A stretch of DNA of 64,000 nucleotides. Origin: Bryopsis sp. KO-2023 (lineage: Eukaryota > Chlorophyta > Ulvophyceae > Bryopsidales > Bryopsidaceae). The position numbers were made by a program, and so were the translations under genes. Numbering within the stretch: the stretch's first letter is position 1; the number at the start of each line of letters is the position of its first letter. The notes beneath the pieces were generated by a model. The model ran no database searches, was not told the DNA's origin, and saw only the letters and a list, made by a program, of their open reading frames with translations. The DNA lies in contig BSYQ01000009.1 of assembly GCA_030272585.1 (NCBI GenBank), positions 3,224,001 to 3,288,000 of the forward strand, given 5' to 3'. Shown here in pieces: positions 26,548 to 56,800 of the stretch.

Positions 26548-27200
26548 CCGTAGATAGGGTAATTTTTGCGCGCATGAACTTTCGCGTGTTTTTTTTTTGC
26601 GACACTAATTTTTGCGATTCAATCAGGTCGCAAAAATTAGTGCAACGCAAACATTAGGCTGCGCAGAAAAAACAGCTGCGCAAAAGAAAAGCTGCGCAAA
26701 AAAAACAGCGCACGAACCAAGTGCATGTCTCTTCCTAGCTCATTTCCCCCTGAACTATACGAGTCAACACCCTTTGCGTAGCCCATGCGGCTCCAATCGA
26801 CCCCTCCGCAGCCAGTCACTGCCCTTCGCAACCTTTCTTAGCTCCTGAGCCATGTTCGCGACGCCTTTGCACAGCATGTACGTAGCCGTTGTTCAGGATG
26901 CCCGGATGGTTGTCACTGATCCAAGGGTGTGAAATTGGAGTGATGGATTATTGTGGGGAGGTACCGGTAGCTTCACTCTGTTTGCGTTAGCCTTTGTTTG
27001 CGTTAGCCTTTGTTTGCGTTGGCCTTTGTTTGCGTTGGTCTTTGTTTGCGTTGGTCTTTGTTTGCGTTGGTCTTTGTTTGCGATGGTGGGATGTTTGCGC
27101 GGGCTTATTAATTGCGGTGCTTCAATTTTTGCGACACTAATTTTTGCGATTTTTCCTACTCGCAAAAATTAGTCCAACGCAAAAATTACCCTATCTACGG
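26548..27200. mobile_element. Inverted-repeat DNA transposon (MITE-like), 653 bp, TA target duplication
   Basis: The ends are exact inverted repeats: the left end begins ccgtagatagggtaattttt and the right end is its reverse complement ending at 27200, both continuing to cg. TA dinucleotides flank both sides (26546-26547 and 27201-27202). Just inside each end lies a further palindromic unit built from cgacactaatttttgcga and tcgcaaaaattagt. The centre holds a 16-bp tandem array. No transposase frame is visible, so it is non-autonomous. TA duplication suggests mobilisation by a Tc1/mariner/pogo-type enzyme; this is inference. Confidence 0.85.
26981..27092 (+). repeat. 16-bp tandem repeat inside the transposon
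   Basis: Six full copies of tttgcgttRgYctttg from 26981, then a degraded seventh. The unit drifts in order from gttagcc through gttggcc to gttggtc, suggesting stepwise expansion from one side. Many copies contain ttgcg, which is also present in the terminal repeats. Confidence 0.85.
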
Positions 27201-27202
27201 TA

Positions 27203-30200
27203 TTATTCAGTGACAGGGTGTCATGTGACTGTAGGTGGTCAGAATTGAGAAAGGGATAAAATAAGAGTGGAAGTATGGATGCTTGTTCTTTTTGCTGTAA
27301 ATTTTGACAAGCAATCTTCTTGTTTAAAAAACACATAATTGCATGGAGTGTTTCACAGGGGGACAAGGCAAAGGACATGCGACTTGTTACAAAGCTTCAC
27401 TCCTAACAAACAGAAAACACAACACAATCCCATCTGTGAGATCATCATCCCTTCCCCCCCTCCCCCTATCCCTCTGCAAATTTTTCCCCACAATTTCCCC
27501 CACCCCTTCTTTTTGACTAAAACTCCACCGAGACTCGAGCTAAAATTGGTGGCGTTGTCCAAAGAGGTTTTCTGTAATGAACCTCTTTACTCACATTCAA
27601 CCTTCCCTTGATTTTTTGTCACTCGGAAAAAAAAACAAAACACACTCTCAATTTAAAATTCTTTCTGAATTTTTTTGGGTAAATCATAAGAGCCCGTCGT
27701 CGAAATGACATTCACACCAGCAGGTGGTAGGTGGGGGGCAAGCAGTGGGGCAGAAAAGAAAAAAGAAACAAAAAAACAAAAACATTTCCTGGTGCAATTG
27801 AGAAATCGGATCGATCTCAAGATGAAAAAAAATAACAAAAAAAAAAATGGTAGGTCAATTCCACATGATCCTTGTGTCCCTGTGGAAAAGGAAGCAAAAA
27901 AAAAACAAAAAAACTGCTTTTTCTCTCTGGGAATGTGTGCAGCAGGACGAACACCCTTTTTTAAAAAGCAAAGAAAGAAATATTCCTTGACACTTGAAAG
28001 GAAGAGACAATCCTCGGAAAAAAAATACGGTTTTCTTCCCTTTTTTCTTTTCATGTCACGTCGTTTCTTGTTTTTTGTTTTTTTCCCCCCTTATCCCCCC
28101 CCCCCTTCGACCCCCTGCTTGTTTCTCTCTCTCACACACACACTCTCTTTTGCTCTCCTTTATCTTTTGTTCGAGTTTTTCTTGTTTTTACTTTTTTTTC
28201 TCCCCCAATTTATCACCCCATTTTTTTGTCCCCCTTCTTGTTTTCGCCTCCTGCTTTCCTTTCCAAATTCCTAACCCGTTTTTCTTTATCTTTTTTTTTT
28301 TTTTCGTCAACTTTTTAAGTCCTGAAAATAGAGCCAATCATTTCCTCCCCCCCCTCAAATATCAGACCCTTTGTGAATTTATTTTGCAGGTCAAAACAAA
28401 AAAAAACATTTTCCTCCCCTCCTTACAACCCCATTCCCCCGGAATCGTGAAAATCCACAACATATCCAGCAAAATATTTTTTTTTATTTTCTCTCTCTCT
28501 CTCTTCCTCTTTCATTCAAAAATAAGAAAAAAAAAACAAAAACCCCTTGTCCAAAATACACCCACATCCACTCCCGATCGAGAAAGGTTAAAATGCAAAA
28601 AACAAAACAAACTGGGGACGGGAAAAAGCAAACGTTTTTTTTTGACACTCGAGTAGAAAGGTAAAGAGACAAAAAGGTTGAAACTCTCTTGCTCTCACTT
28701 TTTTTTTGAATTGTCCTCTATGACAGACATCAACCAATCACCTCACCCAAGCCCACTGCACCAGCTTTCCCTAAACAGCCCCCTCCAACCAACAGAGTAG
28801 AAGAGAAAAACCACACTGAGCAATTCGACTCTTGCTGCCAGAAAACTCTCGTCCCCCCCCCCCCCCACACACCCAATCCTTCTCTAGCCCGACCTGATCT
28901 ATCCCCATCCCATCCCCCCACAAACCAACTCCACTTTCATTTCATACAACCGCATCATCTATTCCTTTTTTCTTAGGATTCACTTTTTTGGACGTTGATT
29001 TACACATAATTCTGCTTGTTTGTTTTTTGTTTTTTTCCTCCTCCGCCCAAAACAACCCTTGACAGTGGAAGAAGGATGCACAAGAGCATACATTTTCTAG
29101 TATGCATTTAAATCACGTTGTGAGAAAAAAAAAAAAAAAAACCAAAACGAAAAAACACCCCACCATCTAGAAACCCCTCTTTTCTTTTTGCCCTCCCCTC
29201 CTCCTCTGTTTCGGTCAACTTCATAAATTTTTTCAATGGTTTTTAGTCAGAATGTGCAAAAATCCACTCCAGCACTAGGGAAAAAAAAAATCAGTATCCA
29301 AATACAAGAAACCAAAAAACAGAAAAAGAAGGGAGGGATTGTTTTTAACAACAAGAAACGAGCAACACAGGGAAAATGGACCTCACTATTGAAACATTGA
29401 TTGATTTTTTTTGATAAATTTTTCTTTCTTTTCTTCTCCCCCCTTGACAGGAGCACCAGCTAGCCAGCCGCCATATTTCCTTTTCGAAAATGTCCTCTTC
29501 ATCAGGTTTTTTCTTTCAAAACATCTTTTCTTTTTTTCCATCAACCCATTTTTTTTTTTTTGCTTCTCCCCCCTTTTCTTTTTGCACCCCTTCCTCCCCA
29601 AAAGCAACCGTTCTGTGTCCCATCGATTAAATTTTTTTTTCCTCTTCTTCTTGGTCTTTCATTTATCCACCGAGTTTCCTTCACCTCACCCCACCACCCT
29701 CCTACAAAATTACTGAAACCTACAAAACTACTGAAACACTAAGAGGTTTCTCTATTTTCTTTTCGGGTGAAAGGCTTCAGGGAAGGAAAAATTAGAGTCA
29801 ACATTTTTTTTTTTGTTTCTCCTATGTATTCGGGAAAGAATTAACATGGTGAATTTCTCTCTTTTTTTTTCCTTTTTTTTTTCTTTTTTCTTCCCCCCCC
29901 CCCCCCGGGCTGAAACCCACATATCCCCCCTCCCCCTTTCCTCCAACTCTCACTTCGCACCAATTTTTAAGCCACTCCCCTGCTCTCCTTTCGCAGTATG
30001 ACTAATCCTTGGCCTTAAAAACCATTAATGATTAGTCATTCTCCCACAGAACATGAAACGTGAAGGTGGAGGGAATTGGAGAGGGGGCACGGGGGGAAAA
30101 AGGACACAAACAGTGGCTTTTGAGATGGCCAATTTCTTTTTTCCTTTCTTTGTCTATACTTACCGATCACATACAGGGACGGACACACACACTTCTCCTT

Positions 30201-30771
30201 CTTTTTTTTCCAATGCATTCAGCCTTTTTTTTTCTCTTTCCCCCCCAAATTTCCTTTCTTTTTGTCTTGGGACATAACAACAAAACACTCATCATTGCAC
30301 AACCAACCCTACTTTCATTTTCTTTTTTAGTTTTTTTCATCCCTTCGTACGCCACCAGCAAAAGAAAACCCATTCCTGACCCCTCCTAGTTCTGAAAACT
30401 TTCATCCTGATTAAGTCAAATCTAAAAAGTTTTTTTTTGTTCGGGACAACTCCACCACAGAGAAAAAAACCAACTATCAAAAACAAACAAAACACAAACA
30501 CAGAACCACCAGCAATAAATGAACAGAATCGACCAAAAACCAACTCCAGCACTCAAAAATCTATACTACGGTCCAACCCTCCCTTAATCATCAAGGGAAA
30601 AATTTAAGCAAAGCATGTCCAAAGAAGGGGGTCAGAAGAGAAACAAAAAAACCCTCTCCGCCTCGATAAAAGAACATCAACAGATATCCCGACCAAGAAA
30701 CCGTTCCAATCCAGCACAGTCAGGGATACCGAAAATCAATTCACTGGCATCACATGCCCATTGAAAAGTTT
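27203..30771. other. XRN1 gene 3' flank: long G-depleted (C/T/A-rich) tract
   Basis: About 3.5 kb without recognisable exons. From about 27.4 kb the plus strand is strongly C/T/A-rich and G-poor; 28081-28140 has 32 C and 3 G. Relative to the minus-strand XRN1 gene this is again a C-depleted sense strand downstream of a stop codon, mirroring the FtsH 3' flank. Pure runs of C, T and A are frequent. Confidence 0.6.
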
Positions 30772-33700
30772 TCAATAGTGGCGATAAGGAGAGTAGCCTC
30801 CGTAGGGCATTGCGTGACTGGGTGGTGTGGAGGGCATGAACATGCCTCCCCCATATGGGCTCCCATCAGGCACTCCAGCAGGGACAGGGTAATGTCCATG
30901 GCCACCCCTAGGCGACGGAACAGGGACCCCATATGGGCTTCCAGGAGGAGCCATAGTACCTGAAACACAAAAAGACCGTCGAAAAACTTTTAAGTTCAAG
31001 TTTGAGGTCTTAACAGTAAAATTTTCTTAAGATGGGAATCCTCAGCCTGTCATTTTTTCAGCCAATTTTGAGCTTCGATAGAATTTGTCGGAGCTAATCG
31101 GAGAGAACGAATTCAAGAAGTCTTTTCTAGGAGAAAATAGATGGAAACCCATCTGTCTGGGACCATCACAACAAAAAAAACGGGGTTCTCTACAAGGAAG
31201 ATTGCTATGTTTTAGATTTGAACATATGTCGATACCTGGAGGGCCGTACTGCTGCCTCGGCGACAATTGAGGAGCATAAGGGTTGGAGCCAGGCACCATC
31301 ACGGATGGAGGGTACTGTCTGGGAGACAATTGAGGGTAGGAATACCCTGGATTGGCACCCGGTGGAGGGGGATACGCATAATTTGATCTCGGCGACACTT
31401 GGGGCATTCCGTAAGGAGCAGACATAGCATGAGGCGAGCCACGAGGGGATGGTACCCCCCCAGCTCCGCTGTAGCTCGACTGGCGGCTGTTCGACCTGGC
31501 AGGTTTGGGAGACCGGGATGGTTTAGGCGACCGAGATGGAACTGGGGATCGGGAGGGTCGAGGGGAGACTCCGTGGCGAGGGGAGCGGGTTGGGGTGCGA
31601 TTTCCGTGCGAACTTCCGTGTGGGAAAGAGGGGGGGTCTTCTGGGTGAACTGCTGAGCTTGAAGGCATGCTCACTGAACGAGGGGACAGACCAGGGATGT
31701 ACACTCCGGATCCGTAGCTTTGGCCGTAGTTCTGGCTCTGTGTGTCGCTGTGAGCACCTGAAACACATTTGCATACATTAACTTCCACAGCAGTAAAAAA
31801 AGTTCCCCACCTGAAATACACTAATTAATTTCCAAATGAATGTTGAAAATGTGCCAACCCAGGCTTATAGAATCCAATCCTGCCAACATTTTCGATATTC
31901 GAGGCAGATGTAAAAAAAACAAAAGCTGCAAAAAAAAAGACCATGGGGGTCGATGTTCTACTTGTGCGATAATATTTCACTTCTTCTGCAAACTGTTTAC
32001 ATCGATCGGTCTGTCAGTTGTATTTTTTTGGTTCGCCAGCATAAGGAATATTACCCACATACCTTGTGTTGCACCACCCATGGATTGACCACCCCATGAT
32101 CTTTCTGAGGCAGCCGATTCCGTTCTTTGGAGCGACAAGCTCTCCATGCTCGGCACTTGAATGTGGAGCCCCCTGACCACTTCCTTCTGATTCTGCCTTG
32201 GTTCTTGGTAACCAGCCATTTTTCTGTTCTTGCTGCTCCTGGATCGACCCAATTTGGCGTTTCTCTTGGGAGACATGGAATCAGGCACCATGTGGCCTGA
32301 CAGATTTTGCACAATACACAGCAATTCACACTGAATCAGAGAAGCTGTGTTGACCCAACAACTACGTTTCTAGGTAAGACTGGCCAGTTGCACAGCTTCT
32401 TTGCCCTCAAAATTCACAAATTGAATTATTGGTATGCAGGATTTTGTTTTTAAATGGTTCCTTTCATCCCATTCGGAATGAAGGGCTCCACTAATCCCCC
32501 CCCTAAATAAAAAAACCAATAAAGAAATAAAGAAAAAAAGAGGAAACAAGTCCTCCCCCCTCTATACCTCTTGTAGCTGTGGCCTCTGCTGCTGGTACAG
32601 CAATGTTGCCTGGCCATCTTTTGCTGAGTCCATTTTTCTTGGAGAGAGCTCCAGCACTCTTGGAAGCCAAATCCTTCCTTGACACAGGCTCATCACCATC
32701 ATCATCAGGAGTAGCTTTCTCTCCTGCACAGAAAGAAAACCGCAAAAATCAACCATGGGTCGGTAAACTCCAAACATTCACAAAAAACTGGACAGACTGT
32801 TTTGAAACATCATCGCCGCACACAATATACCTGTCAAGGCAGACATGTTCACCATTTCCCAGGGCTGGACCAAGCAACTGCAGTGAGCCGTGGCTGTGCC
32901 AAAAATGGACGACGACTCGAACACCTCATTGGCAAACAGCACCTCGACACCGTCGCTCATAACCCCTACCACCAGCCCTGTCACTCCGAAAGGCACCTTC
33001 CCCGTTCCGACATAGCTGATGATATCACCAATGTCGAAAGACGAACCCACCTGGAATCACCCAGTCAAACAATCAAGTTCTTGGAACAACAAGCTGCAGA
33101 CATCCAGTGCTTCTTTATTTATGGAACATCTGATCACTATGGAGCAATGCATTGGGAAGCCTCACATGTTCTGACAAGAGTTTGGAGTCCTCGACTGGAG
33201 GAATCAGTTCTTCTCGTTTCACAGAGACTGTGACTGGCCTTGGAGTTCGGGAAGTCAATCGCAGGATGGCTTGAGCTCGTTTAATCGCATGCACGTTTGC
33301 CACCAGACAATCAGCCTGTTTCCCAAAAGAAAGACCACAAAAAAACACCATTCAGCGTAACATCACCTCGATAACAACCCTCAATCCAGAACAGTCATGG
33401 CTGCTTTCCCCCATTCAACACCGCCTCAGGAAACCCCTAAGAGACCCTGCTTGCAATCACACAACTTGATTTACCTTTACGAGCGGTCGACCTGCGAGCG
33501 GCAGAGTTGCCAGCCATTCCTTTGTTTTCAAGACCATGTCATCGATATCCCCCTTGTCCAAGTAAGGGAACACGCTGGGCAGTCGGATTTCCCCACCCTC
33601 TGGAGTGCAGTCCACTGCTTTGAAAACCCAATAGAACGATCTCTTGTAGGTTTCCAGAATGGACACCAGAGAATCGGTGTACTCCCAGCCGGTACCATTT

Positions 33701-36700
33701 GGACTAGGACGCACATAGCCAGGCACGCACATATTTTTGGAGCCCAATTTCACAGCCAAACCCACCTCCTCTCGATCGGTCCCTGTGGAAAAATCAGTTT
33801 GAATGTAAAATGCAGCCTTCTAAACATCAGGTACGATTGGTAATATCAAAAATGGGCTGAACAACATACTTGATTCCTAATTGGCTAAGGTGAACATCAA
33901 AACTCTCAAAATTGGGTACCTGTGTTAACCCAAAGACTGCCAGTGATTCTGGACAGCCCCTGCGGAGAAACCCCCAGCAGCTGCGCAATCGCCCCACTGG
34001 GATGATACTCCTCGTCCGACTTCATCATGAGTTTCTGGACCGATTTCCAAGCCAACAGGGAAGCAGGCGAGTGCGGCTGAACCACCACATTAACCTTCAA
34101 GGGCTCCTTGGCTTCTGAATCCTGTTCAGGCTGCTCTTCCAGCACCGAGGCCACGCAGCCCTGATATGGTTTTCCAATGAACAGGAGCTTGTCGCCTCCC
34201 TTCAATCGGAGTTGGCTGAGACCAGGGCGGACCGGCGACATCGTGGGAATCGGGCAGTGTCGAAGCACCACCTGTTTTCACCATACGTACAATTCCAGTA
34301 AAGACAAAATACAGGAAACAGCGATTGAACTTTGCCTTCTACTACGGTTAATTTCAACAAAAAAAATGTGGACACGTGTGTCTTGAATCCTCCTTTTGAA
34401 AAGAAACCTCAGAAAAAGCCTTTTTTCCTTTTTTGGCGACCATACCTGCAAAGGCCACACTTCATCGTCTCCGAATCGCTCCTCCACAGTTCCCTTGCCA
34501 GTTCTCATCCACCCTTCGATCGGTTTCACAGTGACCAGAATTCTGCAATCATCCACATCCACCGCCTTTTTTCGCCTCATCACCCCCAGCACGGCTTCCA
34601 CAGCGTTTTCCCAATCCGTGATCTCTTCTGCTTCTTTGCGTCGCTTTTCTGATTCCGTGACTATGGAATCCCTGTTTTCCACTTTCATCACTTTCGCCTT
34701 GCGCAAGTAGGGCCAATCCACAAACACTTGCCTTCCCAGCAAGTTTTTCGAGACCTGTGCCAGCAGTTTTCAAAACTTTCACACACTGGTAGCTTCATGC
34801 AACATTATTTTTTTATTTTTATTTTTATTTTTTTTTTGGGGGGTGCTCAAGGAATTACAAGGAAACAGTGAAACAGTAGTAGGTATCGATTTATGCAGCA
34901 ATGACTAATCAATGACTAATTGAACCTTGATGGCGTCCACCTCCACGATGTCATCCTTTGAATTCACGGTCAACAGCAGGGACTCCTTTTCACTCGGATA
35001 CGTAAACAACCGAACCCCGATCTTCATTAAGCAACCTTCAACCTATTCCACAACCAAAACAAACATCAACCACCCACCCATACAACTCGATATTGCAGAC
35101 CCACAATCCCTGCCCCCCCCCCCCAAAAAAAGAAAACTTCGCAATCACCTCCAATGTTTTGAGAGTGGGGAAGCCAGGTGGCAAATCCATCATGGTTTCA
35201 CCATTGCCCAAAGGTCCGAGTCCTTTCGGAGCAGCTTTAATTGCTGTTCGGGACTGGGCATCTCTTGTGGAGATCGAGGCATCAGTGGCAGTACCGTTGG
35301 TGCTGCCGTTGCTGCTGGACTTGGTACCTTCTGTCGTCCCCTCCACTTGAAGGCCACCGGGCTCGTCACACAGATGAACTCGGATCAGGCCTGCAACACC
35401 ACCTGGTCAGTAGTCAGTCATGTCAGCAAAACCACAGTGTCAGAGAATTTCTCCTGCCACACTGTTTATTCTCATTTTCATGTAAATATCATCAATGTAT
35501 GGACACCTGATTTTCATCTTTGTTTGGATTCCATCCCTTCCTCCACATTTAGGGGGGGGGGTTTGGCCTTCTGTTTCACCACAATTATTTGGACGCAATT
35601 CTTTTCTTCCCCATATCATATATTGAGCCATGAACCCACCTTCTCTGTAGACGAAGGAGAGGGCATGGCCCAGTTTGTTTCGATCCAGCTCCTCATCCAA
35701 AAACTCTCCACTGGGAATGCTATCCACAAGACCCACCAGTTTTCCATAATCGATTCCTTCAGAAACAAAAAAAAAAATTAACAAAAATTGAAGATAACAG
35801 TATCAAACTATTCCTTTTTCCTTTTTTGCTTGGGGTGGACTGGCTAATTTCATTACCAGTATCGAAATGTAACGATACACAGATACTTTTTTCGTACACC
35901 AGAAGAAAAGTTCGGTGCAGGCGTATGGTGATCCAAGCTTGATTTTCGAGGTGGATTCGTTTTTTCCTTCGCTTCATGGAAAATAAAAGTCAGCAGTTAA
36001 GAATGTTGTGTTTCAGGAGAAAAAAGACCTACCTGGGAGGAGAACCACTGCCTCCCATTCTGCTCGTTTTCCCTCCATGTCGATTCGAGCTTCGTCTGGA
36101 TAGTACTCAGCCAAAGGCGATTCGGGGTCTTCCATGTAAGGTTGCAAAACCTCCGGAAGCAGAGCGTACGAAAACCTCGGCAAAGTTGCCATCAGCTGTG
36201 TGAATGGGGTCAGTGGCTGCCCCATGTCAAAGTTGCCTTTTACGAAAAAAAAAAGAAGCATTTAATCACTGATTTAAAAAAAAAAAATCATTACCAGAAA
36301 AGTGAACTTAAAGGTTTTCTAATTTCACCCAAATTTGACCGACTGGTTTTTTCTTTTCTATTCTGTTTCCCCCCATCTTTTTCTTCTTTTTCTTTTTTCT
36401 TTTTTTTTGGGGGGGGGGGAATGAGGCTCATGACCAAATGCTGCAATCAGACGTATTTTTCACCCTTTGGGTTAAAATGTAACGAGCGGAAAACTCACCC
36501 TTCACAGACTTGAGTCTGGTCATATCCGCCGCGAACGGAGCATACAAATACGGGTAGGAATAATTCCAGCTCCCCACCCCTTTCGTGTAGTAATGCACGG
36601 ACCAATTGAGTGCCCTGCAATATTCCTCCACGACTTGGCGTTTCTCGCTGGGGTCGAAAACTTGGAGCTTCTCCATGTAATGCCTGTCTTGCCACATGGC

Positions 36701-39700
36701 CATGGCTTCCTCCGAACTGGAGGACAGCTCAAAAATTTCCCTCGCAGCCCTGTGCATAAGAATGGGTGCCATTTCTTCCGAAATCAAACTCATGTCGCTG
36801 CCGTACCGCTTGGCCTCGAAATACTCCGAGTTCTGAAGGGGAAATTCAAAAAAACAGGTTTTTCAAGACATCGATCACGAAAATTGTATTGATATCTATA
36901 TATTTTTTAGAAAAGAATGCCCCCCCCCCCCCTTTACCTTGACTCTTTGCGACAGCAAGTCAGACTCCATCTTTGCGATTTTGGTCAGCAGCTGTTCCAA
37001 TCTCTGTGAATTTATCGAATCGCCATCGACGATGTAACCCCCCAAAGTTGGGAGAAGCTGCTTGTAGGCATCCATTGCTCTGTCCAAAACCCCCTCAGCC
37101 ATGTCGAAAGTTGGCAGTCCTGGACAAAAAAAAACACAGCCTTTTTGAACCACTTTCACCATATCTGCTCTAATTCGAAATTATTTCATCTGCTCTGATA
37201 TTTATCAGAATTATTTATTTATTTATTCATTTATGGGGTGATTTTTTGGGGCAGCATCGGACATTCGATCGCTTGCATTAGTTGAAAAAACCAACATTTC
37301 TCATTTTCAGGTGACCAAAAAACCCCCACTGCCATCATCCTGAAACCTGATACCAATATATTACCTGGGAGCCAGCTGTTTCCAGTCAGACAACAGAGGA
37401 GAATGAAATCTTCCACAACTCTGGTAATATCTACATTGAACGATGAAGGCAAAATTGTGTCCACCTCGAGCTCCAGATAATCCCTCAGCAACCTTAAATT
37501 TGATCAAACAATACATTGAGATGTCCTCCTTTTGGTTGCGTCTGTCGCTTTATGTTAAAAAAAAAAAGAAATTGACAAAGAGAAAAAGAAGAAAAAAAAA
37601 AGAAAAAAAAAAAAGATGAAGTGAGGATCTTGGGCAGCTGACAATTGTGCACCTTTTCCAAATTTTCAGCAATTCTCTCAAGAGAGTTGAGAACTACGGA
37701 AGCAAGCAGCAAATCTACTATTCAATGTTTTTTCTTTCCTTCTCTCCACACTTCCCCACCCCCCCCCCAAAAAAAAGCAAGAAAAAAATTCAAATTCTCT
37801 AATAAGACGCGCCTCAGCCGCAACCCTCCTAAGAACGGTGGGTCAAACATCACAGCAGTTTCTAGCATTTCATTTATGGTAGTCAAGAAAAAAAAAAAAA
37901 AGAACAAACTCACCCCATTCTACACAGAATGAATTCATCCTCCAAAGAGCTCTCCAACATTTCCCTAGCTGCTGGCCCTCTGCTTCCTTTGCCATAAGAC
38001 ACGAGCTCCCTCAAAAGGTACATGTGGGGCTCATGACTGACCAGCGCCAGCATCACCATGCTGGCATCCAGCCCGTACACACAATGCGTGAGATTTGCGG
38101 GCCAATTTCCGCTCGCCCTCATGTTACGAATATACTCCAGAATTTTCTGCTCCCCTTCTCCAGGCACATCGGCACCTGTTTAAAAAAAAACAATCATGAA
38201 AAAACACGATATCATCGACACTGGTTTTATTCAAATTTCCTCTTTACTGGGGACACCTTTCTTTTTCTTTTCTGAACAATTCAACTCGAAAAGACTGAAA
38301 AACAAACATAAAACAGGGAGGATACGGACTAAAAGACAATATATATATACAGTGGTACCCCGATTTAGTGCCGCTCGATTTAGTGCCAACCCCGATTTAG
38401 TGCCGCTTTTTTCGGCTTGTCACGACTTTTGACGTCTCCAATGACGATCATCAGATTCAACAGTGATTTCGGTGATTCTGCTCATATGGGGCAGTGTCTT
38501 ACACATTTATATACATCGCTGATATTGTTAAACATTTTTCTGGTCGACTGAAGAAAATCCACATTGTGTCATGACGTAAAATAGTGTTTGTATCAGAAAC
38601 AAAACAGAAAGTTCACCCCCTAGAAGAGACAAAACAAAGCTTGTAAAAAGCCCTCTAGGTTTCCTATCACTAAATCCACAATCCTGCCACCTTCACATTA
38701 AGCTAAATTCTTAAACACTCTGATGAAGGGTTTTCTCAAGGGTGCAATGATTAATCGACTCTGGCGTTTGTTCTCGTTTTTATAATTGTTGCAATTGAGA
38801 TCAACACATGTGCGTATGACAATTTTTATTCTTTCCTCTGGTGAACAAGAGTAAAGCCCATAAACTTCGTTTCACAGAACACAAGACACACTGAGACTTG
38901 CCACACTGACACTGACATTTTTCTGGTTGAGGAAAAATGCGTCAAATTTGACTTTCAGGGTGTTTGTCGTGCGTTCCGTGATTAGTGCCAACCCCGATTT
39001 AGTGCCGCCTTTTTCGGCTTGTCACGGGGCGGCACTAAATCGAGGGAGCACTGTATTCCAAAAATAAAATTGAGAGAAAAAGAGTGATAATGGGTTTGGT
39101 TGCCATTCCTGCTCACCGGAGATGATGACTTTGGGAACTTGCCATGCTCCATTTTCGCTGATCTTCCTCCTCACGTAAAACTTCAAATTGCTGGTCATCT
39201 CGTTCATAAATTGCGTTCCTGGACTGATTGCATTGCTATCGAAAGACCTAAGCGCTTCTCCACGCCGAGCCGCTGCTGCTTTTGCCTGAGATAGAATTTA
39301 TCCAATATTTGGCGTCAGCAGAAGACAGGGCAGGCTCACTTGTTTCCACATCGATGAAACTCAGAAAATGACATCAGAATGCATTCGATCCAGCCATATA
39401 TAAATAATATGACCTGTGGTTTTAGTCATTGGGATTTGTGTGAAATATCGCAAGATACTGGGGGGATGGGTTGATAGGTTACCACTGCTGAAGAAAACAG
39501 CAGCATGAAGAGCCTTGATTCATGGACATATTTCCTTCTGTCTTCCACTGAGGAACCCAACTATGGCCTACACTACAACGAATTTCCTGCTGCGAGCAGC
39601 TCGGCTCAAACAAAACCACGACACAAGCAACGCGTGGTCGACGTTATCGAGAGTCCTATCGCTGCCCGACTCCCTCGACACGAGCAGTAATTGCGACTCT

Positions 39701-40410
39701 AGAAAACGAGGGGGACAAGGTCGCTCACCAATTTCATATTTTCGGACGCTCTGAACCTCCTCGCACGTTGCTCTTCCAGTTTCGCGCGTGGGGCGACTCC
39801 TGTTCGATTCAAAAACTCAAGGACGTCAGCTTCATCCACGATATCTCCTACAGGAAATGAACCAACAAAGCAAACGGTCCAACAACCCACCATCCATCGC
39901 CAAGTACAACAAACTCTGCGGGCGAACCAGGGTTACGAGCCTGTCGATATATTCTTGAGCCCTCTCCATGATGGCGTTGATATCCCCCTGACCTCCAGTT
40001 TGGTTCGCAGCAGCGTGAAGAATTCCATTGAGGTCGAGGTACAAGTTGTCCGTCGGGGGAAGCTCGCCATTGTCGACGGTCTCATATATACAGGGCCAGC
40101 GCTCGCACAACCACCGAAAAAACTTGGGAACGCCTGCGACGAGCCGTGACAATGACTTCAATCCCACGGTCGAGAGCATAGATCGTTTCTGAGGTCAACC
40201 CCCCCAAAACAAGGCATTCCTTCCTTGACTTCGCCGTTCACAGTGCGTCTCAATCGAGTACACACGAGCACCTGTCTCGAAACGTGGACTCGGGCTCTGA
40301 ATTTCAAGCGATCCCAAAACATTTCCTCAAACAGAGTTGTTTTTTTTTCTATTTTTGACCTTCCACGCGCGAAAGCGTTACAGTTTTTGCAGGCAGGTCT
40401 GATTACCCAT
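30772..40410 (-). CDS. XRN1: XRN1-type 5'-3' exoribonuclease homologue with two substituted catalytic acids
   Basis: Twenty-one exons in coding order: 40410-40407, 40133-39891, 39799-39729, 39285-39117, 38175-37914, 37492-37365, 37119-36938, 36832-36499, 36236-36033, 35756-35640, 35390-35149, 35042-34926, 34754-34446, 34271-33920, 33782-33475, 33315-33166, 33050-32831, 32723-32568, 32296-32063, 31757-31236, 30959-30772. Total 1,503 residues, fully in phase. N-terminus MGVPKFFRWL; D35 in YLDLNG, D82 in AMDGVAPRAK, the 5'-phosphate pocket KLEEQRARRF, PGEGEQK (E169, E171), D199. The later XRN1 domains are present, including an SH3-like segment (PFGVTGLVVGV, VEVLFANEVF), so this is the cytoplasmic XRN1 type. 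The tail is rich in Pro, Ser, Arg and Tyr with RSPKPSRSPKP repeats. However, GLDAD reads GLDAS (S201) and GNDFLPH reads GNSWLPG (S289). Binding without normal cleavage is a reasonable inference. The intron after exon 4 carries a transposon. Confidence 0.95.
38350..39053. mobile_element. Pogo-like non-autonomous element in an XRN1 intron, 704 bp
   Basis: The left end begins cagtggtaccccgatttagt; the right end is its inverted copy with 22 of the first 25 positions matching. TA flanks both ends (38348-38349, 39054-39055). Subterminal sequence repeats the motif cgatttagtgcc several times, and a direct repeat ttttcggcttgtcacg occurs near both ends. It is a relative of the element at 55071-55761. 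No transposase fragment was recognised in its centre. It lies in the XRN1 intron 38176-39116 and should be spliced out. Confidence 0.88.
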
Positions 40411-42121
40411 TTTCGAACGCAGGGCTTCGCTGCCCTTGGTTTTCCCCGCAGTCCGCCTTTCGTATGATAAGAGCGTCCCAAAATGTCGCGACGGCTTTTT
40501 CACAGGGGCTCAAAACAGGTATCCCTGCTATGACTCCTTTTCCACCTTCTTTCCCACAGAAAAAGCGAAACGGAAAAAACGTCCAAAAGCAACGCTCGAC
40601 CACCTCGGGGGGGATTCCACGTGCGTTCCGTTCGGGTGTGCTTTGTTTTCTCCTTCCCACCAACAAGCGTCTATTGGCTTATTTCTTTTTGCGCAGCGTT
40701 CGGTTCTGGCATGGGTGGTGGAGGTCTATCCCTGTCACGCTATGATGCCCACCTCCACTATTGTCCAGCTCTCAAACCAGGTAACTGTACAGGTCCCATG
40801 TAGATATGACTGGAAGCAATGATATGAATTCCACTGGGAATTTGAGAAAAGTGGGATGTGGAACCCCACGCGCTGAAATACAACAGAACACCGCAAACGG
40901 GGCGGCTTGCGCGGTGCTCCAAGGTTTCGAATCACCCCCTTCGAGTCGTGAATTGACAGCGACGAGCGCTTCGTTTCTCGTCTTTTTCCCACGATCTGGC
41001 CTCAGTTTGGCTTGTATTTGTGGTGACGTTGTTTTACTGGGGAAGTGACTGCGAAAATCTCTTGGCAAGAGGGGGTTTTACCAGAACACGTCAAGTGGGT
41101 GGCTGAGAACGACGTGCAACGCTGGGGCTCTGCCTGAATCCAGACAGGCCCGATCAACGCTGTCGGGGTGCAGACTTTTTTTTGCTGCTCTGCTTCACGG
41201 TTTTACACCTCTGATGTGCAAGCTGGCTTGCTTTGGTGTAGAACAGGAACAATTGTGGGAAGCCAGCTGGTGTTTCAGTGATGTAAGCAACTTTTTTGGT
41301 GTTTTGGGAGCGGCGTTTGAGGCTTTCTGAAGTCGGGCCAATCAGAGATCGGTCGGAAGGAAACCCAGCAACAAAGTGGCGTGAACTGGTGGGGAAAAAA
41401 CGAAAAAGGGCACCTCGAGGAGCACACACAAGAATATTATGGCCGCCAGGACTCGTATCTTCAGGCAATCCTCTCTTTATTTGCGATTCGAAGCAAGACG
41501 CACGGCCTGAGTACGAAAGTCAAGCCAACTTGATTGCTCAACTGCGTACAGCCCCCCAATCGACGCACTTTCTAGCCTGACTTTGAAGTGCTCATCCCAA
41601 GAATTTGTTCGTATAAATGATGCCAAAGCCACTACGGAAGTACAGAAAAAGAGAACGAATCGCGAAAAGCGCGGATTAACGATGCGACCTCCAGTGATAC
41701 GATTCTGTCCATTGTCAAGGTTGAGGGGTTTATTGGGCCACATGAGTTTGCATTTCAATACTTACTGGATTTTTGCCCCGGGATCCAGGGAAGTTCAGGA
41801 GAGGGAACGCACGGTGGCGTGCACGCGTTAGAAGGCTCCACGCGTGCGAATACGTTCAAACTCTTTTTTGATTCTATTTCGTTTGTTTCATTGACACCCG
41901 CGGCCCGTGTTCGCGCGCGTCCTATCCAGGGGGGGTCGGATTATCTCTTGCGAAAGGTAGCACGGTGCGAGGGAAAAAAAACCGCAACAGCGCTGTTTTC
42001 TTTTTCCTCTCTTTTCAGACATAATCAGGAGGAATAGAAAAGGGGGGGATCGAAGCGATAAACAATACAGGATTTGAAAAAAAAGAAAGCGGAAGAAAGG
42101 ATAAAAGAGGGAAGCGAGACG
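40411..42121. promoter_or_regulatory. Divergent intergenic region, XRN1-like gene and BTB-like gene
   Basis: Holds the promoters of the minus-strand XRN1-like gene and the plus-strand BTB-like gene. GC content is higher than in surrounding flanks. A short plus-strand exon chain (40464-40518, 40560-40620, 40697-40745) closes in phase to a 54-residue product starting MIRASQNVATAFSQ, but it begins only 54 bp from the XRN1 start codon and needs a 41-nt intron, so I do not list it as a gene. Nothing else was recognised. Confidence 0.45.
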
Positions 42122-43908
42122 ATGCTCAGCACCACCACGAACAATGCGCACCGCCAGCCACCCGTCTGCTTCCGCGTGAGAGGACGGGATTTCCTGTCAT
42201 CGATGGATACTGTGAATTACTTCCCCGACTCTTATCTGGCTTGGCTAGTGGGCTGTTCCGTTGCCGAGGTGCGAAGAGGCCTACCAATTACAGTGGACAA
42301 ACAACCAGCTGCCTTTCATCGCCTTCTCGAACGAACGAGGTACGTATCGCGACAGGCTCGTCGGTCCGTTTGTCGTATAGGGAGCTAGGTCCACCCCCCA
42401 AAAGAGTGTTTCAGTGCGTGTGAATGGTCCGCATCGTCACAAAACTCACTTTTTTTTTTGAATCATCCAGATAATAAAGTAACATCAAAAAGAACAACAG
42501 AAATTCCCATCCAATGCATAGGTCCCATGCATGTTTCCATCAGTCAATACATGCAAATGGTGTGCAGGCATTTGAAGGCTCTGAAAATAGGGTACCTGTA
42601 CAACTGCGAAAAAGTGAATGGAGCCGGACCTGTGTCCGAACCAAAACAGCAGCGTTCAGCATCGCGGCCCCAAGATGCTCTGGGGCCTTGGATCCCTGAC
42701 CCCGATCCTGATGATCTGAAAAGCCCGAGGTTCGATGACATACTGGACCTGGGGAGCGATGAAGACGAAAACGGGATGCCTACAGGATTTCCTTTTCCTC
42801 CACCGCCACCACCACCACCACCCCTGCAAGCCTATCCACAGCCACCTCCACCTCCACCACCCCCTCCACCTCGGCCTCCACCCCCTCCGCCGCCGCCACC
42901 GCCACCCCCCCATCTGCGACCTCCCAACCCATTGCTCATGGGTCATCATCCTCCCCCACCTCCGTTTCCACCGCCTGGATCGCTACGATCACCGCCTAGC
43001 AAGAACTCCCCTGGTTACACTCCTCGGAATGCAGCCCATTTCGAAGAAAAGGTTTTTGCCTCGAAATAAAGGACACAATCCAACCTTTTGATATATCGAT
43101 CTATTGCTATGATAACAGAGGGCACTTGAATTGACTCTAAAATTCGACCTTTCGGATCTGACATTAAACCTTGCATGTCCACAAGTTGGCGAACTTGAGG
43201 TTAATATTCCCAAGAGCTCCTGGAAAAGCCATCAAGAATAATGGATTTGATTGGGTTTTTCCAACAGAAAATTGCAGTCATGTATCAGATTGACCTTTTC
43301 TATGATCTGGAGGTTGTAGTGTTTTTCTTGCACTTTGATTTTTTCATTTTCTTCGATTCTGGGCTTTTTCGAAGGGAAAAAGAAAATGAAGCTGATCTCC
43401 CCTTCCTACTCTTTTGCCTTTTTGTCCCCAAAATTAAACGCATTAATTTTGTACACTCCAGGTCGATCTATCCTTCGTGGTGGATGACCTCATCCTCGAC
43501 ACCGTTTCCTTGTTGGAAGAATGCATCCAAGGCCAACGATTTTTCGACAAGGCAGTTTTCGTCGTGACGAGTGGCGAGGGCGCTCACGGCCGAAAAGTGC
43601 TCAGACCCTATGTCTGTCATCTGTTCGACAGCGTGTCCCGAAAAATGGTCGATGTCCTCCGAGCCACCCATGGAAACGTTGCGACGAAAACTTGGCAAGA
43701 ATTCGAGAGTGTTTACGCATCCACCTACCTGACGACTGAAGAACAGCACGCGATAAAAGAGGGAATTCGAAAACTAGGATTTGGGTGTACGTTTTCGGAT
43801 CTGAAAATGGACCCAGACAATTTCTTGCATTGGAGATTAGCTACCGATCGGGGGGCGAGGGTTTTAGATAATGAAATTGCTTTCCGATGTTTGGTCGTGT
43901 CCTTGTGA
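42122..43908 (+). CDS. BTB/T1-like domain protein with long polyproline segment
   Basis: Exons 42122-42339, about 42493-43051, and 43462-43908, giving 407 residues. The first exon reads VCFRVRGRDFLSSMDTVNYF, then PDSYLAWLVGC and VDKQPAAFHRLLERTR, resembling the start of a K-channel-tetramerisation (T1/BTB) domain, where FPDSxLA and a DRDPxxFxxIL element are usual. The second exon continues to KIGYLYNCEK, then a 100-residue region dominated by proline with Leu, Gly and His interruptions, encoded by CCX repeats. The last exon is a globular-looking C-terminus (FVVDDLILDTVSLLEE, KVLRPYVCHLFDSVSRKM) that I cannot place. KCTD-type T1 proteins often act as cullin adaptors; that role is inference. 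The 1/2 junction is uncertain: the only phase-compatible acceptor I found is a weak AAAAG ending at 42492, while the better CAG at 42469 breaks the frame. The last junction is clean. Confidence 0.65.
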
Positions 43909-46900
43909 CGAATAACCACTGCGCCCGACTGTACATGTCGATTAGCTTTAGGATGGGGAGAAAAAAAGAGAGAGAAAAAAAACAGTGGGAGGGAAATTGA
44001 GGGGGGAAAGAAATGGACAGGGAAGAAAGAAAAAAAAAAAAAGAAAACACCAGAACAACATTGCTTGATCTGATGATTTGGGATTTACCTTTTGAGGGGG
44101 GGGAGGGAGAATTCCCCATGTTCTTTTTTTTTTTCCCTTTTTTTTTCTGCTGCCATACGATATTGTGAAACACCAGATGAGAGGGAGAATTTTAATGGGG
44201 AAAAAAAAAGTGAGATTTTTTCTTGAAAAAGAAAAAAAAAGTGATGAGAGAGAGAGAGAGAAAGAGAAGACATACCTGATTTCCAGCTGACCATTTGTCA
44301 AAAAAAAAGAAAAAATTGGCAAGAGGTTGAAAACAAATGTTGAAGCTAATCAGCAAAGTGTGACCATTCTTTTTTCGGATTGCAATGCGAATACCTTCTA
44401 GGGGTGGATGATGTGAGGGTGGGTTCAGAGGCCTCATGGGCAGCAGTTGCTGTCGGCCTCTCAAGAGGTTTTGTGTTTTCATGCCGGGGGTAAAAAAAAA
44501 AAAAGAAATTCAAAAAATTCAAAAAGAAAAAACCAGAAAGACTTGCAGGTAAAATGGTTGCTTGGGGTTTTGTTTCGGGGGGAAGGGGATTTTTTTTGTG
44601 GATAATATTGTTTATTCTCAAGGTGCAAGGAGCGAAAACTCACGGAAAAAAGGTTTTTTAAAAATTCGGGGGAAAAAAAAATATGGAGGAAGAAAAAGTT
44701 ATTGAAAATAACATGGCCATGTGGAGGCAGGAGGGAGGGATGGGGTGCTTGAAAAAAAAAGAAGAAGAAAGAAAAAAAGGGAGAGAACTGTAATTACATG
44801 TGGGAGGGTAACCGTCGATGTTGATATGATACTTGGTACGGTTGGGTAAGGGTTACCACTGCCACTCACATGAAAATCTGTGTGTGTGTGTGGAGAAATG
44901 CCTTTTTTTGTCTTTTTTTGTCTTTTTTTGAAAATATGTTTTGAGTGAAGGCGGGGGGGTGGGGGGGTTGGGGGATGGGCCACCAAAAAAACCAAAAAAA
45001 AGAGGATTGGGTAATCGTGAGTGATTTCTCTTCCTTCGACCGGATTCATGATTGGCGTTTTTTTCTTTTTTATTTATCTGGCTTTTTGCATCCTCGCACA
45101 CTCATTTCATCCGACTGTCTGTAGGTCGATTGATAATAGTAGTTGTTATGGTTAATATCTTTTTTTTTTTGAACATATATATATACCCTCCTTTTCTTCT
45201 CCCCTTTTTTTTTCTCCCCAGATTAAGCAGCCTGAAAATGGAAAAAAAGAAACAAAAATTCACAAAAAGGAAGTAAATGGATAGATGTGGAATTTTTTTT
45301 GCTAATGGCCGTATGATCTCAATGGCCCAGTATTTTTAAAATGCAACATCAGTTGTTTCCATATATTCTTTTTAGGAGGATGACGTTCGGAAAGCAAAAG
45401 GAAAAAGTTTGAAAAAAAGTTTGGGGTGGGGTGGGGTGAAGCCCAAGGGAATATGTAGGGGGGAAAAGAATGGAAAAAAAAAACACACAAAAAACACGAA
45501 TTTTTTTATTTGCAGAGGGTGCCGGGGACTTTGTGATGATGGTACCTGGCAAAAAAGGAGGAAAGTGAGGGAAAAAAAAAGAGAGGGACAAGAGAGTGGA
45601 GATTTGGAAAAAAAACAGGTTTTGAAAAAAAAAAGAAAACAAAGAGTGATGAGGTACCGAAAAGAAAAAAAAAAAAGACGACCATAGAGGTGATGGATGA
45701 AAAATGCCAAAGTCTGGAAAAAAGAGAGAGAGAGAAAAAAAAAAGGTGTTGAAATACCAACGTATGATCGCTTATTATTTTTGGGCATGTGTCACATTGA
45801 CATCTTTTTAACTCTGCGGGAACGGGAGGGTGTTCTTGAAAAAAAAAACAAAAAAAAAACGTATTGGGGTGGGAGACGAACAGAAAAAAATCAAACAAAT
45901 TCCATAGCTGTGAAAGAAAGCTGCGATGGATTCAAAGGAACATATATGTATGTACATATGAAATACATATATGTTGTTTGACGTTGAGGAAAACCCGAAA
46001 AAAAAACAAAAAAAAACAATACGAGATAGCTGCAGTAGAAAATGTATCTGAAAAAAAAAAAAAAAAAAAGAAGGAAATGTTTTGAGTGTTCGACAGGGAA
46101 AGGGTGGGGTTAGGTTTGGTTTTTTCTTGGGTTTTTTTTTTCTTGTTTTGCTATATTTTTTTTTTCTATTGATATTTTATCCTTTTCTTTTGTTTTTTTC
46201 CTTTTTCGTTTCGTATTTGCTTTTGGGGGAGGGTGTTGGGGTATGCTTGGGTGGTGGTGATAATTTTCTGTTTGGACTGGAATGGGGTGTTGATGGAGCT
46301 CGATTTTGTGTATCGTATCGAATGGCCATTTTGTGTTTTTGGAGGGCAGGGGGTGTTATGCTTTTTCTTTTTTTTTTTAAGGAAAAAATAGGGGGGGTTG
46401 TATCGACACGAATGAGTCCTGTTGGAATATTTGACACTCAAAAGCACCATGTAATTTCATCGAGAGGGATGACTGCACGGCGCACGTTGTTCAATGCTTT
46501 GTCTGAGAAAGGGGGAAAAAAAAAAGGAAAGGAAAGCATTAAAAACTGAGAAAAAAGGAAACGTATCCCTTGGGAAAGAACAAGAAAAAAAAATTCAGCA
46601 GGAATCGGGTGAGGTTTTGTGAATGTTTTTGTTGTCCACTTTTCTGTTTTTTTTCTTGTTTCGAAAGTCAGACCTCAGTAGAGGAGGGGGGATCTCAGAA
46701 GCTTCTCTAATGTGAACATCTTTAGAAAAAAAAGAAAAAAAAGCCAAAAAGAATGATTCGTAAGGAGAAAACGTGTTGTGCATTTTCGAGCTATCTATTT
46801 TTCGGAGTTACTCTTATGGACATGACCTAAAAAAAAAAGGTAGTGGTGGGGTTGTGTTACTTTTTTTTTTTTTTTTTTTTTGGGGGGGGGGGTGCTGGAA

Positions 46901-53800: not shown

Positions 53801-56800
53801 CAGGAGGCCTCACATCAGATGGATATTTTTTTGCCTGTGTGGTGTCCACCGTCAATGACCCCATGTGTAGGGGAAATCCTTTGGTCAGGATATTTAGCAG
53901 TGGTATATTGTAGATATGGGTGTGTGTACGTTTTGGACATAAGTTACAGATTTTTTTTTCTCGTGCATCCATCGGCATTTCACAATCATATTTGGTTGGT
54001 GGCGAATTTTGAGGGGGGGGGGGGGGGGGATTTGAGGAAAGGAAATCTCAATCGATAAAAAAAACGCTCGCTGGCATGCAGGAAGTGGTGGAGCTTTTTG
54101 ACGTGCAACAGTCTCGGAAAGGGTCCGAAAGTGAAGGCAATTCCTCATTACCAGGGTTTGCTGAGGGACATCGAGGATGAAATCGTGGCGACTCGAAAGA
54201 AAATCCTTCGAGAAAAACCATCATCCACTTGGTTGCTTATTTTCAGGTAATTTCCATACACCCAGTCCCAATCTGTGCTCTCTTTCAGCATATTTTTTTA
54301 TTGTGCTGTGCTTTTCTTACTTTTATTTATTATTTATTTTTTTTTGGGGGGGTGTATGCACCACATTGAATTTTCCATGACATCATTGTTTCATTATTTT
54401 TTTATATTTTTTTCTATTCATAAAAATGAATATCCAATATTTTTTTCGGTATACTCAATGAAAGAGGAAAAAGTGATGTTGCACAGGACACAGTATGCAG
54501 CCACGATCGCAGCCCAAAGTCTGCTCCACTCCGAATCCGGTCACAAATTCCAAGCGCACGCCGCCCCTGGACCAGAAGAAATGAACTGGCAAGCCCTGTG
54601 GAAAACGTGGGTGCAGAAGGACATCAGGAGAGTATTGGTTTTCCCTTGGCTCGTGGGCCTTATCATTTTCCCACTGGGTATCTTTGCTGGTGGACTTTCC
54701 AAGCTGTCGGAGGTGCTGTGCGATCCTGATGGGGACAGCTATGTAGGGGAGGGCTATTGTAAGGACACTGGAAGGCTGTGGAGTCCCCAGAAGCTGATCA
54801 CAGGATGGCTGCCTCCCGTTTTGGTTTCGCTATGGCAGAACATGGTCATGCCGAATCTGTTGTACATGTTGGTTCAGGTGAGCTTGTCACCCAGATGGAC
54901 TGCAAAAGCGGGTCCTAGTTCTTCTTTTTAAGTTTTTTTTTTATGTATAACAGGAGGGGGTAAAAAAAATAGACTTGATTAGAGAGTCTAAAAGTGTTTG
55001 GCTTGATGGAATTACCCTACAGATTCAAAAGAGAATGACTACTTTGTTATTCTATTTATTTTTTCTTGTACAGTCGTACCCCGATTTAGTGCCGCTCGAT
55101 TTAGTGCCAACCCCGATTTAGTGCCGGTTTTCTCGGCTTGTCACGACTTTTGACGTCTCCAGTGACGATTATCACGTGCGACGACGATTTTGACAATTCC
55201 GCTCATCGTGGGCAGTGTTCCTATAAAAACTTCAACTAACTACGAAGTTCTTTTCCCTCGCCAGTGGAAACCACTCCATCAAACGTTTGCAACTCCCCAC
55301 TCTTCACACTTTTTGCACCACCACTCCCCTCCTGCCACTTCCCTTTGTCTTGGACAATATTACTGAGAGTCCTTTCGGACACTCCATATTTAGAGGCAAT
55401 AGCACTTTTTTTCAAATCAAATCAAATCATGATTACACACGGGGGGGCCGCTCGGCTTCTCACTTTTTTTCAGCACTCCCTTTTCTACCTCGTCGACGAG
55501 TTGTGATTTCTCTGCAACCGTCAGCCTTTTTCTTTTGTCGCTCTTTCGTTCGGAAGTCCCTTGTGGACGTAACGGCGAGAGAAGGGGGAGGTGGCGGCTG
55601 ATTTTACTTTTTCAGTGGGTTATGATCATTGATTGATTGTTTTAATTGATTGATTTCTACTTTTAGGGTGCTTATCGTACGTTCCGTGATTAGTGCCAAC
55701 CCCGGTTTAGTGCCGCCTTTTTCGGCTTGTCACGGGGCGGCACTAAATCGGGGTACGACTGTATTATTATTTTTGATCTTTGATTTTGGGGGAGGAGGGG
55801 AAGGGAATCTAAACTTCCGGCTCCCCCCCTCTTTCTCTTTTTTCTTTTTTCTTTTTTTTTTTTTAAAGCTTGTCTTTCCTTTGCATTTGAAAACAGATGC
55901 AAGCTTCTTGCATTTCTTTGAGTCAACTCGACCAGGAAATCGCCAGTCTGTTCTTCTACTGGGACGTTATCAACATTTTCACCGGAGGAATGGTGGGTGG
56001 CACGATTCTGTCGAAGCTGGACGTGATTGTAAACGGTGGAGAGAGCATCACTCAACTGTTGGGAGAAGCACTGCCAACCTCGTCCAATTTCTTCATAAAT
56101 TATGTGGTTTTGCGGGCGTTTTTCTTGGTTCCATATCAGCTCATGCTTCCGCATCCTGGAGTCTGGCAATACTTGCTGAGGTAAGCCCTTTTTTTTCCGC
56201 TTGGCAGTTTTTTTCTCTTTCTTTTTTACCTCAGCAATCCCTAACTCTTTCGTGTCGTCTTGTGAATTTTCTGTTTTTTGTTATTTTCTATAGGTTTGGT
56301 GGAAAAATCGGGACGAAAACTGCAAGGGCCAAAGCTCTGCTCATGAAATCGTGCAGTATCCGTTACGGTCGAGAATATGGGATTGTCATGTTGATTTTCC
56401 TGATCGCTCTGGCTTACTCGGTGACCGCACCCATCATCGTTCCTCTGGCCCTGGTGTTTTTCATGACATCCTGGCTGACGTGGCGGTACCAGGTGTTGTA
56501 CGTTTTCGTGCGAAAATACGAATCCGGAGGGAAAATGTGGCCTTTCGTGTTCAACCGAATGCTTTGGATCCTCTGGCTGTTTCAAGTTTTCACGTCGTGC
56601 ATTCTGACCGTCAAGCAAGCGTTCTGGGAGGCGGCGATCCTATGGGTGACCGTGCCCATCATTCTGCTCAGGTTTTGGAGGTAAGGCCCAAGTTTCAAAG
56701 TTTGGAGGGGGGGGACGCTGAGAAATCGCATTTTTATTCATATTTTTGCTTTCTTGCCCCCTATCCGAGAAAAGACGAAATTGTTTTGCTGGCGTTGTAG

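What the first reader, a model, noticed from the sequence alone, without database searches (positions are those of the whole stretch)
36938..38175. XRN1 homologue with two of seven catalytic metal-binding acids replaced by serine
The seven acidic residues that hold magnesium in Xrn1 are invariant in active enzymes. Here D35, D82, E169, E171 and D199 are kept, but the second Asp of GLDAD is Ser201 (GLDAS, near nt 38065) and the Asp of GNDFLPH is Ser289 (GNSWLPG, near nt 37372). The position equal to S201 (yeast D208) is the classical site mutated to kill yeast Xrn1. The 5'-phosphate pocket (KLEEQRARRF) and all later XRN1 domains are intact and the 21-exon frame is unbroken, so this is not a decaying pseudogene. 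It may be a conserved non-catalytic binder of 5'-monophosphate RNA, a regulator of a second XRN1, or an enzyme with altered metal use.
Basis: partly seen in the sequence, partly recalled or inferred. Interest (0 to 1): 0.78.

Follow-up and report, generated by a model that had tools for sequence, protein, structure and literature searches.

The report
Catalytically dead XRN1-type protein
A photosynthetic organism, probably an alga, carries an intact, full-length gene for the RNA-chewing enzyme XRN1 in which two of the seven acids that hold the catalytic magnesium are serine, so it probably grips decapped RNA without cutting it; the only other XRN1-type gene found is damaged at different catalytic positions, which suggests that another branch of the family does the cutting.

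Summary
The minus-strand gene (40410-30772, 21 exons, 1503 aa) is a full XRN1: five Pfam domains pass their cut-offs. Of the seven metal-binding acids, five are kept. Yeast D208 is Ser201 and D292 is Ser289, both codons AGC. All 7 XRN references have Asp at both places, apart from the fly chain, a laboratory mutant.

The own-genome search found five XRN loci. Only two match the XRN1-specific D1 domain: this gene and a paralogue about 170 kb away. That paralogue has three other acids changed and most of the 5'-phosphate pocket, so no intact XRN1-type gene was found. Three other XRN genes (one clearly XRN2-type) keep all seven acids.

This gene keeps 6 of 6 substrate-contact residues. The same position is the standard kill site in yeast (D208A), where the mutant binds decapped RNA and stays trapped on it.

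Best reading: a natural pseudo-exoribonuclease that binds 5'-monophosphate RNA and does not degrade it. Loss of catalysis is well supported; RNA binding and role are inferred. A decaying pseudogene is very unlikely. Conservation in relatives could not be tested. "Regulator of a second XRN1" does not fit, because the second XRN1 is itself damaged.

The parts
30772..40410 (-). XRN1-type gene A, 21 coding exons, 1503 aa, ATG to TGA
   Evidence: introns GT-AG, no stop in frame
40407..40410 (-). exon 1, ATGG, start of canonical MGVPKFF
   Evidence: inferred from the canonical N-terminus. Paralogue B has an acceptor at the matching place and one upstream ATGG^GT candidate, but its exon 1 is assumed too
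39891..40133 (-). exon 2: D35 (40035-40033), His41, D82 (39894-39892)
39729..39799 (-). exon 3: 5'-phosphate pocket KLEEQRARRF (K89, Q93, R96, R97)
37914..38175 (-). exon 5: PGEGEQK (E169, E171), GLDAS (D199, S201)
38060..38062 (-). codon AGC, Ser201 in place of yeast Asp208
37365..37492 (-). exon 6: GNSWLPG (S289)
37375..37377 (-). codon AGC, Ser289 in place of yeast Asp292
36499..37119 (-). exons 7-8 (37119-36938, 36832-36499): part of the second conserved region, XRN_M
36033..36236 (-). exon 9: more of XRN_M, base-stacking Trp525 (fly Trp540) in AEWEAVVLLP
32831..35756 (-). exons 10-17: end of XRN_M, then XRN1_D1, XRN1_D2_D3 and SH3_12 domains
   Evidence: each over its Pfam cut-off
30772..32723 (-). 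exons 18-21: Ser/Pro-rich tail, 11 SP[RK] motifs in the last 353 residues

Best explanation
Gene A encodes a natural pseudo-exoribonuclease: an XRN1 that has lost two ligands of the catalytic metal site, and with them exonuclease activity, but kept the fold, the 5'-monophosphate pocket and the base-stacking His and Trp. It should load the 5' end of decapped RNA as XRN1 does and fail to hydrolyse it, like the laboratory D208A trap mutant. It would then act as a reader, shield or scaffold for 5'-monophosphate RNA, while genes of the XRN2/other branch degrade it. Shown: the two substitutions, domains and open frame, and no intact XRN1-type gene found by the genome search. Inferred: inactivity, from mutants at the same position. 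Inferred more weakly: 5'-P RNA binding and the cellular role.
For: Two of seven acids are Ser, each at least two base changes away from an Asp codon. 6 of 6 contact residues (fly His41, Lys93, Gln97, Arg100, Arg101, Trp540; most numbers recalled) are kept. Five Pfam domains of XRN1 pass their cut-offs on the first 1150 of 1503 residues. D206A and D208A, singly or together, are reported to abolish yeast Xrn1 activity (PMC11088878, passage). [quoted passage not shown] GC3 is 0.58 against intron GC 0.39, and 0 stops against about 100 expected at intron composition. A's end branch is 1.25 against 0.13-0.47 for the other rows except B, as expected after loss of a catalytic constraint.
Against: KMNQQR became KLEEQR: two Glu beside the phosphate pocket could weaken binding. 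23 of 76 other invariant columns also differ, so the whole domain has drifted and retention of 6 contacts could be chance (about 0.7^6, or 0.12, hand arithmetic). No expression, relatives, structure or assay was available. No DCP2 gene was convincingly found (weak fragment only), so a decapping pathway was not shown.
Confidence: 0.6

Rival explanations
1. A retired scaffold: the protein is inactive and no longer a 5'-end reader. What is kept is the protein-interaction surface (D1-D3, SH3, Ser/Pro-rich tail) that binds other decay factors.
For: The later domains and a 353-residue Ser/Pro-rich tail are kept; the pocket neighbours are changed; paralogue B has lost most of the pocket as well as acids yet has an open frame through nine modelled exons, the first assumed; deleting the catalytically inactive SMG5 PIN domain abolishes NMD rescue (PMC8233366, passages).
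Against: His41, K93, Q97, R100, R101 and W540 are kept in A.
Confidence: 0.2
2. Still an enzyme with altered metal use: Ser201 and Ser289 hold water-bridged metal, or one metal plus a larger ion such as Mn2+ suffices for slow 5'-3' cleavage.
For: D35, D82, E169, E171 and D199 are kept; XRN_N and XRN_M domains are found over cut-off.
Against: D208A alone is reported dead in yeast Xrn1 (PMC11088878; PMC10557749; passages); 3 of 3 non-XRN1-type paralogues and the giant-virus-like XRN L021 (read by eye) keep all seven; A's end branch is about 2.7 times the longest other non-B row.
Confidence: 0.12
3. A recently dead pseudogene.
For: The two catalytic losses; divergence is faster than in canonical XRN1.
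Against: No stop or frameshift in 1503 codons. Each site needs two substitutions; at 5% neutral divergence about 10 nonsense changes and 22 indels would be expected (indels assumed at 10% of substitutions), P(no disabling change) about 1e-14.
Confidence: 0.03
4. Artefact of gene model or assembly: an unrecognised exon or sequencing error hides GLDAD and GNDFLP.
For: No RNA reads were available.
Against: Both sites lie inside exons with matching flanks; introns 2-6 agree in phase with B, four in the same alignment column and one a column apart (B's first intron was assumed); no alternative exon; two separate two-base changes, with L to M and F to W neighbours.
Confidence: 0.03

Closest known systems
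Xrn1 (yeast Xrn1p, fly Pacman, human XRN1)
   Same: CR1 and CR2, XRN1_D1, D2/D3 and SH3-like domains, MGVPKFF start, 5'-P pocket contacts and stacking residues; best PDB matches are Xrn1 (439.9 bits) ahead of Xrn2 (347.5)
   Different: D208 and D292 are Ser; 53 of 76 other reference-invariant columns kept
Laboratory mutant xrn1-D208A / fly D207A
   Same: Same position lost; the yeast mutant binds decapped RNA and stays trapped (PMC6428865, passage)
   Different: Natural, Ser not Ala, with a second acid lost
SMG5 PIN domain
   Same: Dead nuclease fold in mRNA decay (two of three catalytic residues missing), yet its deletion abolishes NMD rescue (PMC8233366, passages)
   Different: PIN endonuclease fold in NMD, not a 5'-3' exonuclease
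Mkt1
   Same: FEN-like PIN protein with only two of six active-site residues; its function is unlikely to need nuclease activity (PMC7026591, passages)
   Different: Different family and architecture
Plant XRN4 (recalled)
   Same: A precedent for XRN2-type enzymes doing XRN1's cytoplasmic work
   Different: Plants lack XRN1-type genes (recalled); here two damaged ones are kept

Membership tests
XRN1 (sequence family) | XRN_N and XRN_M conserved regions | tested here: met
   252.6 and 235.8 bits, cut-offs 22.9 and 23.8
XRN1 (sequence family) | XRN1-specific D1, D2/D3 and SH3-like domains | tested here: met
   90.4, 73.8 and 35.4 bits, cut-offs 26.2, 21.8 and 26.2
XRN1 (active 5'-3' exoribonuclease) | seven metal-binding acids | tested here: not met
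   5 of 7; S201 and S289
XRN1 (active 5'-3' exoribonuclease) | 5'-monophosphate pocket and His/Trp stack residues | tested here: met
   6 of 6 contact residues kept; two neighbours changed
XRN1 (active 5'-3' exoribonuclease) | processive hydrolysis of 5'-P RNA | not testable with these tools
   needs an assay
XRN2/XRN4 type | lack of D1-D3; closer to XRN2 in the nuclease domain | tested here: not met
   A has D1-D3 and is outside the XRN2 group, 97/97; paralogue C is inside it
Pseudoenzyme (conserved non-catalytic paralogue) | catalytic loss with open frame | tested here: met
   inactivity itself is inferred, not assayed
Pseudoenzyme (conserved non-catalytic paralogue) | conservation of the inactive form across related species | not testable with these tools
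   no eukaryotic relatives held; 0 relatives of A in viral contigs

The most novel reading that the evidence does not exclude
In this photosynthetic lineage the whole XRN1 branch has been turned into non-catalytic proteins: A, a dedicated reader of decapped (5'-monophosphate) RNA, and B, which has lost most of the pocket too. 5'-3' decay would rest on XRN2-type and other XRN enzymes. This would be the first natural pseudo-exoribonuclease pair of the XRN family that I know of.
Probability: 0.35. Interest if true: 0.75.

Novelty: new variant of a known kind. Interest (0 to 1): 0.6.

Why it matters
XRN1 is described as the main cytoplasmic 5'-3' nuclease, and its active-site acids as highly conserved (PMC6753473, abstract in listing; PMC10590902, passage). 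A lineage that keeps full-length XRN1 genes without the catalytic residues would separate the scaffold and RNA-sensing roles of XRN1 from degradation, which so far, as far as I know, can be studied only with engineered mutants such as D208A. It would also show how mRNA decay can be handed from XRN1 to XRN2-type enzymes.

Tried and rejected
Alternative exons encoding the lost Asp: none in six frames of 27001-44000; three stray hits (DSDL at 35222, GND at 36295 and 28345) do not fit. First model started at an in-frame ATG at 40179 with 15 residues before GVPKFF; dropped for the ATGG exon at 40410, which gives the canonical start. The 40179 start is not excluded without RNA. Split active site between A and B: A lost D208 and D292, B changed at E176 (to Asp), E178 and D206. 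The sets do not overlap, but chance gives that in 10 of 35 cases (hand arithmetic), so it is no evidence. Selective loss of acids: not supported (Fisher p=1.0). Relatives: viral contigs with a four-sequence XRN alignment gave 2 loci from 78 candidate stretches: L020, fungal-like XRN2, seen only in part, and L021, giant-virus-like XRN with seven acids (by eye); A alone gave 0. Genome contigs was not scanned. DCP2: one sub-threshold fragment with stops, undecided. Organism: the 18S search did not complete. Bigelowiella natans looks unlikely from contig size: its largest pseudochromosome is about 3 Mbp (PMC8887012, passage), and this genome has an 8.2 Mb contig. Structure prediction was not run: a spliced protein is not a letter-for-letter translation of the DNA, which the tool asks for. 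In print: the searches showed no natural inactive XRN1 in the rows listed; I saw listings, cut (20 of 45; 12 of 14; 10 of 737; 12 of 15), from an open-licence library.

Full report
What is there. The finding lies in a minus-strand gene at window 40410-30772 (C9 of an unnamed 91.1 Mb, 28-contig genome). I spliced it by hand; the introns are GT-AG. On the first 1150 residues Pfam finds XRN_N, XRN_M, XRN1_D1, XRN1_D2_D3 and the XRN1 SH3-like domain, each over its cut-off. The last 353 residues are Ser/Pro-rich with 11 SP[RK] motifs. The best PDB match is Xrn1 (439.9 bits), ahead of Xrn2 (347.5).

The seven acids. I aligned it with human, fly, S. cerevisiae and K. lactis Xrn1 and C. elegans, C. 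thermophilum and S. pombe Xrn2, copied from the PDB alignments. D35, D82, E169, E171 and D199 are kept. Ser201 stands for yeast D208 and Ser289 for D292. The only reference departures at the seven columns are the fly D207 position (Ala) and K. lactis E178 (Gln). Both fit laboratory mutants: K. lactis E178Q is named as the inactive mutant in PMC8850482 (passage), and PMC9512700 says that the fly complex carried a mutation disturbing one Mg2+ site (passage). A second S. pombe chain, not among the seven, also has Ala at this position (8qsz). Both Ser codons are AGC, two changes from GAC, and AGC is ordinary Ser in this gene (34 uses).

What is kept besides. [quoted passage not shown] The other residue numbers (fly Lys93, Gln97, Arg100, Arg101, Trp540) are recalled; the fly chain indexing agrees for His41, Lys93 and Trp540. 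A keeps 6 of 6. Against a clean picture, KMNQQR is KLEEQR, and 23 of 76 other gap-free columns invariant in the seven references (from D35 on) differ, so the acids are not selectively lost (Fisher p=1.0). For comparison C keeps 72 of 76, partial D 50 of 58 and B 41 of 75. A's end branch in a ten-sequence tree is 1.25, against 0.13-0.47 for the other rows except B, which is far longer.

The other XRN genes. XRN_N matches (15) fall at five loci. C (C7:3.52 Mb) is XRN2-type: its joined pieces match XRN2 structures at up to 354 bits and XRN1 structures at up to 241, and lie in the XRN2 group at 97/97. D (C3:7.08 Mb) and E (C3:1.92 Mb) are divergent and not typed further; D was left out of the tree because its model is partial, and E was not aligned. 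C, D and E carry the motifs with the seven acids. B (C9:3.43 Mb, about 170 kb away, other strand) is the only other locus with an XRN1_D1 match (2 matches in the genome, the second at 23 bits, below the cut-off of 26.2). B has Asp at E176, Lys at E178 and Ala at D206, and Arg, Phe, Glu and Lys at H41, K93, Q97 and R100. A and B share introns 2-6 in phase, four in the same alignment column and the third a column apart; B's first exon was assumed, with one ATGG^GT candidate upstream, and its borders were picked with A as a guide. This points to one intron-bearing ancestor; the tree alone does not show it (57/64). The genome search scores only the best candidates and unassembled sequence is unseen, so a further XRN1 is unlikely but not excluded.

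Why it is not a pseudogene. No stop occurs in 1503 codons; about 100 would be expected at intron composition. GC3 is 0.58 against intron GC 0.39. Neutral drift deep enough for two hits in each of the two codons would have left many disabling changes: at 5% divergence about 10 nonsense and 22 indels, indels being assumed at 10% of substitutions.

How it most likely works. D206A and D208A, singly or together, are reported to abolish yeast Xrn1 activity (PMC11088878, passage citing earlier work), and D208A cells match the deletion in autophagy and grow poorly (PMC10557749, passages). xrn1-D208A binds decapped mRNA, cannot degrade it and stays trapped on it (PMC6428865, passage). By FEN1 comparison (recalled), D208 and D292 are ligands of the same, second metal, so A may keep the first metal site and lose the second; no structure was made here to test this. 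The simplest reading is a natural trap: A loads 5'-monophosphate RNA and does not cut it. Whether it shields, reports or scaffolds is open. B would be dead too: E178Q and E176G are named inactive mutants (PMC8850482; PMC5053509; passages), though B's E176 is the milder change to Asp. Dead nucleases with a job in RNA control are known: SMG5 PIN (PMC8233366, passages) and Mkt1 (PMC7026591, passages).

Limits. The window holds a chlorophyll-binding protein ORF, so it is probably photosynthetic; 'alga' is my inference. No relatives, RNA or structure were available, and a DCP2 gene was not convincingly found. Literature searches showed no natural inactive XRN1 in the rows listed, some lists being cut, and cover open-licence papers only.

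Noticed in passing
C9:3432456-3438508 (L009/L010): Second XRN1-type gene B, about 170 kb away on the other strand, with three metal acids and most of the 5'-phosphate pocket changed but an open frame through nine modelled exons, the first of them assumed.
   Followed up: partly
window 38357-39046 and 55078-55754: Two MITE-like elements of about 0.7 kb that share ends (87% over 150 bp and 92% over 107 bp), with CAGT..ACTG termini beside TA, one in the intron before exon 5 of gene A; motif GGCACTAAATCGGGGT 8 times with up to 2 mismatches, 0.02 expected.
   Followed up: partly
window 60737-61318: Chlorophyll A-B binding protein family match (PF00504, E 1.5e-26): the host is probably photosynthetic.
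   Followed up: no
window 16239-17312 and 19831-20280: FtsH-like protease exons (FtsH_ext E 0.00057, below cut-off; Peptidase_M41 E 3.8e-18).
   Followed up: no
window 737-2941: 735-residue open frame with weak RAP and FAST_1 matches below cut-off, perhaps an organelle RNA-binding protein.
   Followed up: no
C3:1923394-1924450 (L015): Divergent XRN gene E with MGIPGF start, GNDSDL and GNDYLP; seven acids kept, family placement unclear.
   Followed up: no
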